Of a stretch of 64,000 nucleotides of DNA, positions 1,434-61,670 are shown one piece after another. The notes beneath the pieces were generated by a model. That model was not told the DNA's origin, ran no database searches, and saw only the letters and a list, made by a program, of their open reading frames with translations. Each line of letters begins with the position of its first letter. The stretch's first letter is position 1. This DNA comes from a virus, in IMG/VR virus record IMGVR_UViG_3300046171_000202, positions 1 through 64,000 of that record. The stretch is one strand, 5' to 3'. Both the position numbers and the translations under genes were made by a program.

Positions 1434-3026
1434 ATGGAATATAATTTACCAAGTCAGATTGTCAAGAATTTAGATTTTGGCACTGACGCAAAAACGAAAG
1501 TTATAAGTGGCGTTGAGAAACTAGCTAAGGCAGTTAAATCAACATTAGGCGCTTCAGGAAAATGTGTCATCTACGAAGATGGCATGGGAAAACCGGTGAT
1601 CACAAAAGATGGTGTAACCGTTGCGGATAGCGTAGTCTTACATGACCCGGTTGAAAACATAGGTGCCACACTTATTAAGGAAGCCTCTAAAAATACAGTG
1701 AAAGAAGCAGGTGACGGTACCACTACGGCTATCGTCCTTGCTGAATCACTTATCAAAGAGGTAAATAAAGAGCAATATAAGGCATGTTCGATACGAGAGA
1801 TTAAAAATGGCATCGATACAGGTCTTGCTCAAGCTACAGCAATATTAGAAAACATGAGTGTTAAGGTTAAAAACTCTACACTAGATCACGTTAGTTCTAT
1901 TAGCTGTAACAATGACAACCAACTTGGCAGCATAATAGCCAAGGCTTATAAAAAAGTTGGCAAAAATGGTGTGGTTTTGATGGAAGAGTCACAAACAGAT
2001 GAAACATACGTTGATGTAGTTGACGGTGTGCAAATAGAATCTGGGCTTACATCACCATACTTTGCTACTAATACAGAGAAAAACAGGTGTGAACTTGAAA
2101 ATCCGGTTATATTGATCGTTTCAAGCAAGATACCTAACCTTAGAAAGATACAAAGTGTACTTGAGTACGTTATAAAGAACAAAAAACCACTACTTTTAGT
2201 AGCTGAAGTTGAGCAACAGGTCAAATCAGCACTTTTAATGAACAAAGTAAAGGGTAATATTAACGTAAATATCATAGATCCTCCAGGTTTTGGCCCAACT
2301 CGCAAAGAAACCATAGATGATCTAGCTATTTTAACAGGTGCAGAGGTTATAAATGAAGAATTAGGTGATGATTTAGACCTAATACAGCCAGATTCGCTTG
2401 GTAAAGCAAAGTTTGTAGTCACAGACAGCAAAAATACTGTTATAACTACGCTACCTATTGACGAAAGCTTAGCTGGTAGAATAAAAGAAGTTAAAGATCA
2501 GATTAAAACTGAGAAAAATAGCTACATAAAGCGCAAACTAGAGCAAAGGTTAGCTATGCTATCAGGATCTGTTGGCGTAATACGCGTAGGAGCAAACTCA
2601 AAAGTTGAGTTGAAAGAGAAAAAAGACAGGGTGGAGGATGCAATATATGCAGTCAAGGCGGCTCTGCAAGAAGGTATAGTACCTGGCGGAGGTGTAGCTC
2701 TGATGGACACGGCTTCTGAGCTTGAAAATATTCATTCAAAGCTAGAAATGAGTGATAACGCAGGTTTAGAGATATTTTGCAACGCAATAAGAGCACCATA
2801 TAAAACTATATTAGATAATGCTGGTATAGCTTACGAAACAAAAGGTGATAAAGGTATTGGTTGTAACGTAATAACTGGTGAAAATGTTAATATGATTGAT
2901 AATGGCATCGTAGATCCTTTATTAGTTACTAAAACAGCGCTTAAAAATGCAGTGAGTGTTGTTTCTACTATAATTTCTGCAGATTGTGTAATATCTAATA
3001 TAAGAATACCAAATGCGAGCAGTTAG
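1434..3026 (+). CDS. groEL: Phage-encoded chaperonin GroEL (Hsp60)
   Basis: 530 residues, nearly the usual 540-550, collinear with bacterial GroEL. Visible are the equatorial ATP-binding signatures: TLGASGK near residue 37, ITKDG with Asp59, GDGTTT at 93-98, the hydrolytic Asp402 in EDAIYAVKAAL, and VPGGG just after. The apical-domain region around 185-375 is present. The C-terminus ends RIPNASS and lacks the Gly-Gly-Met tail of bacterial GroEL. GroES follows 8 bases downstream. GroEL is known in a minority of phages; here it is inferred to fold phage virion or replication proteins. The A/T-rich leader without a Shine-Dalgarno site is typical of this genome. Confidence 0.96.
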   Translation: MEYNLPSQIVKNLDFGTDAKTKVISGVEKLAKAVKSTLGASGKCVIYEDGMGKPVITKDGVTVADSVVLHDPVENIGATLIKEASKNTVKEAGDGTTTAIVLAESLIKEVNKEQYKACSIREIKNGIDTGLAQATAILENMSVKVKNSTLDHVSSISCNNDNQLGSIIAKAYKKVGKNGVVLMEESQTDETYVDVVDGVQIESGLTSPYFATNTEKNRCELENPVILIVSSKIPNLRKIQSVLEYVIKNKKPLLLVAEVEQQVKSALLMNKVKGNINVNIIDPPGFGPTRKETIDDLAILTGAEVINEELGDDLDLIQPDSLGKAKFVVTDSKNTVITTLPIDESLAGRIKEVKDQIKTEKNSYIKRKLEQRLAMLSGSVGVIRVGANSKVELKEKKDRVEDAIYAVKAALQEGIVPGGGVALMDTASELENIHSKLEMSDNAGLEIFCNAIRAPYKTILDNAGIAYETKGDKGIGCNVITGENVNMIDNGIVDPLLVTKTALKNAVSVVSTIISADCVISNIRIPNASS

Positions 3027-3033
3027 TTATTAC

Positions 3034-3270
3034 ATGATAGTTAAAACTATCAAAGAGCAAAAGAAGATAGCTGGGCTAGATATTACAGACAGCATCGATA
3101 GTGAAAATAGGTATTTAAAAGGAGAGATCATTAGCAATGGTGATCTAGTACCTGACACGCTAAGCGAAGGAGATATAGTATATTATGATAGGCACGCTGG
3201 GCACAGTATAACTAAAAACGATACTATATACCAAGTTATTCAGGTCAAAGACGTAGTAATCGTAGAATAA
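3034..3270 (+). CDS. groES: Phage co-chaperonin GroES-like
   Basis: 78 residues from the ATG at 3034; an in-frame upstream ATG at 3013 lies inside groEL and is less likely. The order of elements matches GroES: short first strand MIVKTI, a mobile-loop-like KKIAGLDITD with hydrophobic tripeptide-like LDI, then YLKGEIISNGD, LSEGDIVYYDRHAGHSI (the VGDxV...G.. core), and terminal VIQVKDVVIVE. It is shorter than the usual 95 residues. The tandem arrangement behind groEL mirrors bacterial operons and suggests a complete phage folding machine. Confidence 0.88.
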   Translation: MIVKTIKEQKKIAGLDITDSIDSENRYLKGEIISNGDLVPDTLSEGDIVYYDRHAGHSITKNDTIYQVIQVKDVVIVE

Positions 3271-55763: not shown

Positions 55764-56520
55764 TCAAAGATAATCAAGCACTTGCGAGTGATCTACGTTC
55801 TCTATTAATCGTTCAACAGCTTGCTTTTTTAACTGTGAAACCCTAACATATGCGCTAGTACCTTTTATCTGTAGTTTTTCAGCTATTTGCTTAGCACTGT
55901 GCTTATCACAGTCTAAACCGTAGCTTAATCTTAGTACTTCATATTCTTTGTGGTTTAAATGCTTTTTAAGTAAACCGATCAAATAAACATTAAGTAATTC
56001 TTTATTATACGGCTCTGACTGATCTGCAATTTGGTATGCCATATTCTCATCGTTATTAGGCTTTGCATCTATACTTAAGAATATACTATTAAAAAACATC
56101 TCAACCATTTGCCTGTTCTTTGCCGAAGTCTTTTCGTATTTCATTAAGCTTGTGTTCTGGTATACGTATATTACCTCTGTTTATATCTACAGCTCTTCGT
56201 ATTGCACCTTTAATTCGTTTGCTTAAAAAAGACTTATAGTTTTTTCTATGTCATCTGATTCACATAGCTTTTCCCAGTCGATCCTGTCAACAGCTGCTAC
56301 TAAACCTACTGATCCTTCTTGTATTAGATCAGTTAATGCTTAATACGCCAGATGCTTGCTGAGATGTAGAAAACTTACGTGCTAGATTTTCTACCAAAGG
56401 TAAGAACTTTACTATAAGTTCATCTCTAGTTAGCATCGCGTAATCTATTTCATCGTCAGGCATAGATCTATTAAGATCTTGTTTGTACTTTATATAGTTA
56501 CTTACGTTATAGCTCTTCAT
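55764..56520 (-). CDS. RNA polymerase sigma factor, three frame disruptions
   Basis: Region 2-like: YVMLTRDELIVKFLPLVENLARKF then, in the next frame, TDLIQEGSVGLVAAVDRIDWEKL. A third portion gives LSKRIKGAIRRAVDINRGNIRIPEH (region 2.4/3), and the last frame holds region 4: EYEVLRLSYGLDCDKHSAKQIAEKLQIKGTSAYVRVSQLK. Frame changes: about 56336-56345 (one base to skip), the A6 run at 56225-56230 (one base missing), and 56120-56145 (one base to skip). Start ATG 56520 overlaps the HTH gene end. It is the obvious candidate to direct phage promoters. Confidence 0.8.
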
Positions 56521-60711: not shown

Positions 60712-60951
60712 TTAATCTAGTAGTACCATATATGCTTCAGGGTTAGCTTTTCTAAACCAGTCGCAACCTTTTTGTACTATTGTCCAGTTTTGAGTCATGT
60801 TTGCACCCATAATTAGGTCATACATAGCTGCTTCATCTGCGCTACAGTCATAACTATCGCCTGAAAACGGGTTAGTGATCGTTTCGCCTTCAGAGTATTT
60901 GATACCATCAAACCACTCCGGTAATTCTACTTTTTCTTTTGTTTTACTCAT
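60712..60951 (-). CDS. Hypothetical protein
   Basis: 79 residues: VELPEWFDGIKYSEGETITNPFSGDSYDCSADEAAMYDLIMGANMTQNWTIVQKGCDWFRKANPEAY. The GE.V.NPFSG...... DAVEAMYD.IMG segment is common in T4-like and marine phage small proteins as I recall. Function unknown. Confidence 0.65.
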   Translation of the reverse strand: MSKTKEKVELPEWFDGIKYSEGETITNPFSGDSYDCSADEAAMYDLIMGANMTQNWTIVQKGCDWFRKANPEAYMVLLD

Positions 60952-61211
60952 AATGTATCTATTTTTAAATCGTTATCTTCTAAGAATAAATTACCACCCC
61001 ACCTAATATCATACACATCAGTTTCATACATATCTATACTACTGAATAAGTATATAGAATAAATGGTAGACATTTTAAGATCTTGATACAACATAGCTTC
61101 ATCTAGTTCTTTGTAGATAAGGTTAATACAGAAATCATACTCTGGTTTTTCTTTTTCTAATGCTGCTTTAACTTCTGGTCGAAGTCTTTGTAATAAGGTA
61201 ATTCTTTTCAT
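60948..61211 (-). CDS. Hypothetical protein
   Basis: 87 residues: RITLLQRLRPEVKAALEKEKPEYDFCINLIYKELDEAMLYQDLKM, then WGGNLFLEDNDLKID. Driven by class I copy 7 with a 24-base leader. No recognised family. Confidence 0.55.
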   Translation of the reverse strand: MKRITLLQRLRPEVKAALEKEKPEYDFCINLIYKELDEAMLYQDLKMSTIYSIYLFSSIDMYETDVYDIRWGGNLFLEDNDLKIDTL

Positions 61212-61235
61212 ATATTTTTATTTAATTTTATACTT

Positions 61236-61268
61236 AATATCCTACTGTCATCGTATTTGTTTTGTAAA
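61236..61268 (-). promoter_or_regulatory. Leftward class I promoter, copy 7
   Basis: Minus strand TTTACAAAACAAATACGA, 9 bases, GATATT, 24 bases before ATG 61211. It begins immediately after the 3' end of the tRNA-like RNA. Confidence 0.7.
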
Positions 61269-61271
61269 TTG

Positions 61272-61446
61272 TAGGCGCGGCAGGAATCGAACCTGCCTAC
61301 CATAGCTTTATTACTTACCTACATAGCTTCATTGCCTGCTGGTCGGGTGTCATCACTATGACAGATAAGTAAACCTTCATCGAGCCGTTTATTGCACCTC
61401 GTCAGGATCACGCCTTTAATCGCTATTTAAAATCCACTTGCGCCTA
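61272..61446 (-). ncRNA. tRNA/tmRNA-like structured RNA
   Basis: The minus strand 3' end has a perfect T-arm, GCAGG-TTCGATT-CCTGC (61280-61296), followed by acceptor CGCGCCT (61273-61279). Two partners are possible: AGGCGTG at 61415 (143-base RNA, one G-U pair) or TAGGCGC at 61440-61446, which pairs perfectly with GCGCCTA (175-base RNA). Internal hairpin TGTCAT-AGTG-ATGACA (61349-61364). GAGGTGCA and AAGC.ATGTAG recall conserved tmRNA segments, but no tag ending in Ala-Ala and no 3' CCA (ACAA) are seen. A reduced tmRNA, a tRNA-like decoy or a remnant are all possible. Confidence 0.45.
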
Positions 61447-61511
61447 TATACCCAGTCATTTGCCACCTTTGCTCGTCGCCGCGGTTTGTTATTTATTCGC
61501 TGGGTGTGTCT

Positions 61512-61670
61512 TTAGCTTATTAAGCTTTGTAGTTTTTCTACAGATAACTTGATCAGCTCTTGTCTTTTTTCGTGTGGTAGATCGTCCATCTGCCAATCCA
61601 CCGTGTCTAGTAGCAGCTCTTGCATGTGTATAGCAACGCCGCTAGCAATATCTTCAATTTTCTTCTGCAT
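61512..61670 (-). CDS. Small helical protein
   Basis: 52 residues: MQKKIEDIASGVAIHMQELLLDTVDWQMDDLPHEKRQELIKLSVEKLQSLIS. Helical, acidic middle. Overlaps the preceding gene by 17 bases. Function unknown. Confidence 0.55.
   Translation of the reverse strand: MQKKIEDIASGVAIHMQELLLDTVDWQMDDLPHEKRQELIKLSVEKLQSLIS

What the first reader, a model, noticed from the sequence alone, without database searches (positions are those of the whole stretch)
61272..61446. Structured RNA with a perfect tRNA-type T-arm and acceptor, possibly a reduced tmRNA
A non-coding 300-base gap on the leftward side contains GCAGG-TTCGATT-CCTGC (61280-61296) preceding acceptor CGCGCCT, with a 7-bp acceptor partner at 61440-61446 and a second at 61415, so the molecule would be 143-175 bases, not a normal tRNA. 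An internal perfect hairpin (61349-61364) and GAGGTGCA and AAGC.ATGTAG-like strings evoke tmRNA. A phage tmRNA or tRNA-like RNA could rescue stalled ribosomes on leaderless or broken mRNAs, or be a decoy.
Basis: partly seen in the sequence, partly recalled or inferred. Interest (0 to 1): 0.75.

Follow-up and report, generated by a model that had tools for sequence, protein, structure and literature searches.

The report
Phage tag-less mini-tmRNA with swappable insert
This virus of marine flavobacteria carries a divergent member of a previously unrecorded, widespread family of small RNAs that copy the tRNA-like end of the bacterial ribosome-rescue RNA (tmRNA) but replace its protein-tag message with interchangeable hairpin modules, so it may interfere with, or take over part of, the host's ribosome-rescue system.

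Summary
On the minus strand, 61445-61272 (174 nt) folds as acceptor, tmRNA-like D-loop, insert and T-arm. A close relative (L008) keeps the acceptor through three compensatory changes and has the alanine determinant G3.U70 and an encoded CCA.

At the orthologous position, upstream of the same small gene, related phages carry a clear RNA family: GGGCGUG / AAAUGGUUAG / P2 helix / variable insert / AAC / T-arm / CACGUCC-A, 68-185 nt. One pattern found 89 stretches in IMG/VR; the same pattern with C70 instead of U70 found none. P2 covaries at every pair. Rfam tmRNA places them as both model ends joined without the middle (mostly 32-45 bits; cut-off 47; tRNAs <=27). There is no tag frame, and no SmpB gene in the phages.

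The inserts are modular: the same 23-69 nt modules lie inside the tRNA-like domain in some phages and free in flanking gaps in others. The window's insert includes one.

The window copy has lost G3.U70. Best mechanism: a tag-less tmRNA mimic that engages host SmpB and displaces host tmRNA, as reported for a DS6A-like RNA. That function is inferred, not shown.

The parts
61272..61445 (-). tag-less tmRNA-like RNA (tRNA-like domain with insert), 174 nt including discriminator A
61439..61445 (-). acceptor 5' strand AGGCGCA
   Evidence: 6 bp with 61273-61278 plus A.C at position 7; compensatory changes in L008
61427..61438 (-). D-loop region AGTGGATTTTAA with the conserved TGG, no D-stem
   Evidence: TGGATTTTAA invariant in four relatives; TGG in nearly all family members
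61422..61426 (-). proposed P2 helix 5' strand ATAGC
   Evidence: pairs with 61302-61306 by position analogy to family P2; not testable by covariation in this clade
61302..61306 (-). proposed P2 helix 3' strand GCTAT
   Evidence: as above
61377..61421 (-). insert module M1 (GATTAAAGGCG...CGGCTCGATGA)
   Evidence: same module inside the tRNA-like domain of L008 and L216 and outside it in 5 other loci; absent from L001/L003
61312..61370 (-). second insert arm ACTTATC...GGTAAGTA with inner hairpin
   Evidence: kept in all four close relatives with a U-A/U.G exchange
61280..61296 (-). T-arm GCAGG-TTCGATT-CCTGC
61273..61279 (-). acceptor 3' strand CGCGCCT; discriminator A at 61272
61232..61271 (-). 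intergenic repeat TTTACAAAACAAATACGA..., likely promoter of the downstream operon
   Evidence: 9 copies of the 18-bp motif in the window against 0.22 expected
60948..61211 (-). small gene (87 aa) that marks the conserved position of the RNA
   Evidence: homologue within 1.5 kb downstream of 55 of 79 family members
61512..61670 (-). upstream small gene (52 aa); a similar ORF lies upstream in L097

Best explanation
The element is a phage-encoded, tag-less relative of tmRNA reduced to its tRNA-like domain (acceptor stem, D-loop without D-stem, P2 helix, T-arm), with the mRNA and pseudoknot part replaced by small interchangeable hairpin modules. Most likely host RNase P, 3' trimming and CCA addition make it into a stable small RNA. 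Most members would be alanylated by host AlaRS through G3.U70. It then binds host SmpB and EF-Tu through the elbow and competes with host tmRNA, damping or short-circuiting trans-translation during infection. The window copy has lost the alanine determinant and would act, if at all, as an uncharged competitor. Shown here: homology, fold, conserved G3.U70 and A73 in relatives, absence of a tag, module exchange, lack of a phage SmpB. Inferred: processing, charging, SmpB binding and the inhibitory effect. My estimate is about 0.85 for the identity as a tRNA-like-domain-only tmRNA relative and about 0.45 for the SmpB/tmRNA interference mechanism.
For: Acceptor compensation in L008. Syntenic homologues (55 of 79 beside the same gene). 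RF00023 hits mostly of 32-45 bits across both model ends with the middle missing, against at most 27 bits for tRNA-type hits in control records. The same 3' pattern gives 89 hits with U70 and 0 with C70. Opposite U70, position 3 is G in 70 of 71. P2 covariation at 5 of 5 pairs, score 0.318 against 0.074 shuffled, 0 of 500. No tag ending beyond chance (1 observed, 0.4 expected). No SmpB in 50 records or in the own genome. Published precedent: the DS6A phage RNA is little more than the tmRNA tRNA-like domain, and a similar molecule inhibits tmRNA whether or not chargeable, perhaps by titrating SmpB (PMC4131195, PMC11915505).
Against: No Rfam hit reaches the tmRNA gathering score. The window copy lacks G3.U70 and has an A.C mismatch at pair 7; R2 gives it only 28 bits, near the tRNA noise (up to 25), starting at 61328, so with a different 5' partner. 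The swapped inserts suggest that the payload, not only the tRNA-like domain, matters. No expression or binding data exist. The pattern that collected the family fixed U70 and A73, so the case for U70 rests on the C70 control scan and on the independently found L008, L097, L098 and L123.
Confidence: 0.5

Rival explanations
1. Scaffold for RNA payloads: the tRNA-like domain only provides processing, end protection and stability (as engineered tRNA scaffolds do), and the exchanged insert modules carry the function, for example by binding host or phage proteins or RNAs.
For: 17 modules catalogued; 13 occur both inside the domain and free in gaps of other phages; total length varies 68-185 nt while the frame is nearly invariant.
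Against: Strict G3.U70 would not be needed for mere stability; some members carry very short inserts (68-70 nt total).
Confidence: 0.25
2. Active tag-less rescue: alanylated RNA with host SmpB enters stalled ribosomes and takes the peptide, as suggested for tag-less mitochondrial tmRNA, perhaps helping phage translation.
For: Alanine identity conserved in the family; mitochondrial tmRNA lacks a tag yet is retained together with SmpB (PMC11915505).
Against: The window, L001 and L003 lost G3.U70; without a tag frame the ribosome cannot be released at a tag stop codon.
Confidence: 0.12
3. RNase P/RNase Z punctuation: a tRNA-like cutting site that separates two mRNAs of the leftward operon.
For: It lies between genes on the transcribed strand; 42-48 nt minihelices (acceptor, short linker, T-arm) sit just upstream of start codons in the same phages.
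Against: Does not explain the conserved alanine determinant, P2 or the inserts.
Confidence: 0.08
4. The window copy is a decaying pseudogene of the family and has no function in this phage.
For: Lost G3.U70, CAA instead of CCA, position 7 mismatch, weak R2 score; L001/L003 lack about 55 nt including the proposed P2 5' strand.
Against: Two-sided acceptor changes and an invariant T-arm across the clade; identity to L008 is in the range of the neighbouring genes.
Confidence: 0.15
5. attP copy of a host tRNA 3' end (integration site).
For: The 25-nt 3' end also occurs in an unrelated viral contig as a tRNA-like 3' end (L002).
Against: No tyrosine integrase match in the genome; conserved as a complete acceptor-paired RNA at an orthologous place.
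Confidence: 0.02

Closest known systems
Mycobacteriophage DS6A tmRNA (tRNA-like domain only; Mao et al. 2009, cited in PMC4131195 and PMC11915505)
   Same: phage-borne, little more than the tmRNA tRNA-like domain, no tag
   Different: a single actinobacterial phage case; here a family of about 90 stretches in one flavobacterial phage lineage, with exchangeable insert modules.
Mitochondrial tmRNA without tag (jakobids, oomycetes; RF02544) and ~65-bp plastid forms
   Same: tmRNA relative without a tag frame
   Different: organellar; the mitochondrial form co-occurs with a nuclear SmpB; no modular inserts mentioned in the passages read
Bacterial tmRNA (RF00023)
   Same: acceptor with G3.U70 and A73, D-loop without stem, P2, AC before the T-arm, UCCAC 3' end
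   Different: no mRNA-like part, pseudoknots or tag; below the gathering score
Full-length tmRNA of Cellulophaga phage phi38:1 (found here); the related phage Calle is reported to have one tmRNA (PMC8776804)
   Same: phage of Flavobacteriia, terminase 37% identical to the window's, tmRNA 3' end ACTA like the mini forms
   Different: about 360 nt, 87.6 bits, with a predicted coding part

Membership tests
tmRNA | acceptor stem with G3.U70 and discriminator A73 | tested here: met
   Family: G3 opposite U70 in 70 of 71; U70 pattern 89 hits, C70 pattern 0. Window copy itself: A73 yes, G3.U70 not met (G3-C70).
tmRNA | D-loop with GG and no D-stem, P2 helix, T-arm | tested here: met
   family P2 covariation; in the window P2 is only proposed
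tmRNA | tag reading frame (mRNA-like domain) | tested here: not met
   xAA-stop endings at chance level; inserts of different members are largely unrelated
tmRNA | pseudoknots | tested here: not met
   most members are too short (68-110 nt) and the Rfam alignment skips the middle; pseudoknots of another kind within long inserts were not searched for
tmRNA | Rfam RF00023 at gathering score | tested here: not met
   24-45 bits against 47; window no hit
tmRNA | binds SmpB, charged with alanine | not testable with these tools
   no phage SmpB; host protein would be used
TLD-only phage tmRNA (DS6A type) | phage-borne tRNA-like domain without tag | tested here: met
   no direct comparison with the DS6A sequence was possible
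tRNA | anticodon arm and D-arm, RF00005 at gathering score | tested here: not met
   ARAGORN none, RF00005 16.3 bits against 29
attP in a tRNA gene | integrase in the same genome | tested here: not met
   PF00589 no match in the own record; other recombinase families were not searched

The most novel reading that the evidence does not exclude
A modular phage RNA platform: a tmRNA-derived, alanine-accepting tRNA-like frame that displays interchangeable structured RNA cassettes, which also live as free-standing elements in the same genomes, so that each phage loads the host's translation or ribosome-rescue factors with a different RNA payload.
Probability: 0.3. Interest if true: 0.9.

Novelty: new variant of a known kind. 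Interest (0 to 1): 0.74.

Why it matters
In the literature found here, a phage tmRNA reduced to the tRNA-like domain was known from one mycobacteriophage. Here about 90 viral stretches of one aquatic lineage carry such RNAs, with an invariant alanine determinant and no tag. That makes it testable whether phages routinely target trans-translation with an RNA mimic. The exchange of structured modules in and out of the frame was not described in any paper found, and points to a cassette-like RNA biology in phages that routine annotation (ARAGORN, Rfam at its cut-offs) misses entirely.

Tried and rejected
ARAGORN and Rfam on the window alone gave nothing. DNA similarity to known phages and plasmids found no homologue, only tRNA-type 3' ends. 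The 61415 acceptor alternative was rejected by relatives. L002 proved to be an unrelated tRNA-like 3' end. attP was rejected (no integrase match). The tag search was negative. Rfam at gathering score on 20 further loci, to identify the modules, gave only ordinary tRNAs. The DS6A record is not in the phage collection. The tmRNA E-values alone are misleading, because control archaea also ring; I therefore compared bit scores with control records. R2 on the isolates elemo, phi13:2, phi38:1 and Gundel gave nothing above tRNA noise.

Full report
Observation. The minus strand of the gap between the genes at 61512-61670 and 60948-61211 holds AGGCGCA (61445-61439), TGGATTTTAA, a long insert, then the T-arm GCAGG-TTCGATT-CCTGC (61296-61280), CGCGCCT (61279-61273) and A (61272). 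ARAGORN and Rfam at gathering score find nothing in the window; at a relaxed threshold RF00005 gives 16.3 bits. A single fold is only modestly better than shuffles (z -2.3). So the element had to be judged by relatives.

Close relatives. One pattern scan and one protein scan gave two strain variants in one IMG/VR contig (L001, L003) and a second contig (L008). In L008 the acceptor is GGGCAUA with AUGUCC-ACCA: pairs 1, 5 and 6 change on both sides and pair 3 becomes G.U. This supports the 61445 partner and argues against the 61415 one, which does not follow. L001 and L003 lack about 55 nt of the insert.

Distant relatives and the family. A covariance model of these four (R1), run over records with related terminases, found 104-nt homologues in two more phages, G009 and G003, in front of the same small genes; a scan anchored on a neighbouring protein gave L123. 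All have a 7-bp acceptor with G3.U70, discriminator A, a D-loop with UGG and a T-arm. Rfam's tmRNA model is the best clan match for them: 35.9-38.4 bits, aligned from position 1 to 374 with the middle missing. A 28-base pattern of their 3' end then hit 89 stretches of IMG/VR, of which 80 loci were kept and read. After removing a real tRNA and one mis-anchored case, 71 distinct sequences share the plan GGGCGUG-AAAUGGUUAG-P2-insert-P2'-AAC-GCAGG-UUCGANU-CCUGC-CACGUCC-A, 68-185 nt long.

Controls. The pattern fixed U70, so I repeated it with C70: 0 hits. Opposite U70, position 3 could be A or G; it is G in 70 of 71. P2 was not part of the pattern, and frames were chosen by length, not by pairing: in 37 aligned frames all five pairs have two-sided changes, 96.7% of cells pair (shuffled 83.5), and the covariation score is 0.318 against 0.074, 0 of 500 shuffles. 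With model R2 (built without the window clade) full members in the searched loci score 57-77 bits, tRNAs and tRNA-like genes up to 25, a divergent tandem copy 42, minihelices 17-33, the window 28, L001/L003 29, L008 35. The window's membership therefore rests mainly on synteny, the identical T-arm, the D-loop and L008, not on the R2 score. With RF00023, family members score mostly 32-45 bits, two long-insert members 24-26, none above the cut-off of 47; tRNA-type hits in control records reach 27. Its E-values should not be taken at face value, because archaeal controls also ring.

Context. 49 of 50 carrier contigs encode a terminase related to the window's, 71-85% identical; annotated relatives with known hosts all infect Flavobacteriia. 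55 of 79 elements have the homologue of the window gene 60948-61211 within 1.5 kb downstream. None of 50 records, nor the own genome, encodes SmpB. The own genome has no tyrosine integrase match. Carriage is patchy: several large relatives have none.

No tag. Tag-like endings (xAA-stop) occur in 1 of 71 inserts against 0.4 in shuffles, inserts of different members are largely unrelated, and most are too short for tmRNA pseudoknots.

Modular inserts. Comparing inserts with 1.5-kb flanks of other elements gave 164 matches at E below 1e-3. Of 17 modules catalogued, 13 occur both inside the tRNA-like domain of some phages and outside it in others, for example M2 4 inside and 8 outside, M5 3 and 8, M4 5 and 5. 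The window's insert begins with module M1, which is inside in window, L008 and L216 and outside in five loci; it is the part missing in L001/L003. Rfam did not identify any module in the loci scanned.

Interpretation. tmRNA forms without a tag exist in mitochondria and some plastids, and in mycobacteriophage DS6A; a similar molecule inhibits tmRNA whether or not it can be charged, perhaps by titrating SmpB (PMC4131195, PMC11915505). The simplest mechanism here is the same: a mimic that loads host SmpB and EF-Tu. The conserved alanine determinant suggests that charging matters in most members; the window clade, where three of four sequences lack it, would be an uncharged competitor or a copy in decay. 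The module exchange is not explained by this and supports a scaffold role; the two are compatible. All functional steps are inference.

Membership. It resembles, and I judge it homologous to, the tRNA-like domain of tmRNA, but I do not file it as a tmRNA: the tag and pseudoknots were tested and not met, and Rfam's threshold is not reached. It fits the informal 'TLD-only phage tmRNA' kind, as a new, large and modular variant.

Noticed in passing
L101 1148-1194 and ~2229-2272; L123 436-480 and 3106-3152; L001/L003/L008 (AGTTATG...CATAACT); L134 6678-6721: 42-48 nt minihelix genes in the same phages: 7-bp acceptor (6 bp plus a mismatch in some), 9-15 nt linker with GG, T-arm, no D-stem or anticodon arm; the GAGCATG/GAACATG pair shows a compensatory change. 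Reversed-sequence control gave 4 hits.
   Followed up: partly
L248 1503-1862 (Cellulophaga phage phi38:1, KC821614 26803-27164): Full-length tmRNA, 87.6 bits, not among the annotated features of that record stretch.
   Followed up: partly
L094 523-697 (MW202828.1): A tRNA-like gene with an oversized anticodon region and, next to it, a ~61-nt tRNA-like gene with D-arm and T-arm but no anticodon arm.
   Followed up: no
window 289, 54418, 57791, 59355, 60694, 61251, 62000, 62808, 63852 (minus strand): 18-bp motif TTTACAAAACAAATACGA found 9 times (up to 3 mismatches) on the minus strand among leftward genes, 0.22 expected; the phage also encodes a protein with a sigma-70 region 4 match at 55764-56144, a possible partner.
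   Followed up: partly
window 1434-3026 and 3013-3270: Phage groEL (PHROG 5725) with an overlapping 85-aa ORF where MW202828 has an annotated 10-kDa chaperonin next to groEL.
   Followed up: no
window ~61462-61488 minus strand: AACCGCGGCGACGAGCAAAGGTG just upstream of the RNA resembles module M3 (CAACCGCGGCGAAAGCAAAGGTG), which lies inside the tRNA-like domain in six other loci.
   Followed up: partly
L231 5388-5478 and 5545-5650: Two mini-tmRNAs in tandem on a contig binned with a Bacteroidetes MAG; the first has an encoded CCA.
   Followed up: no
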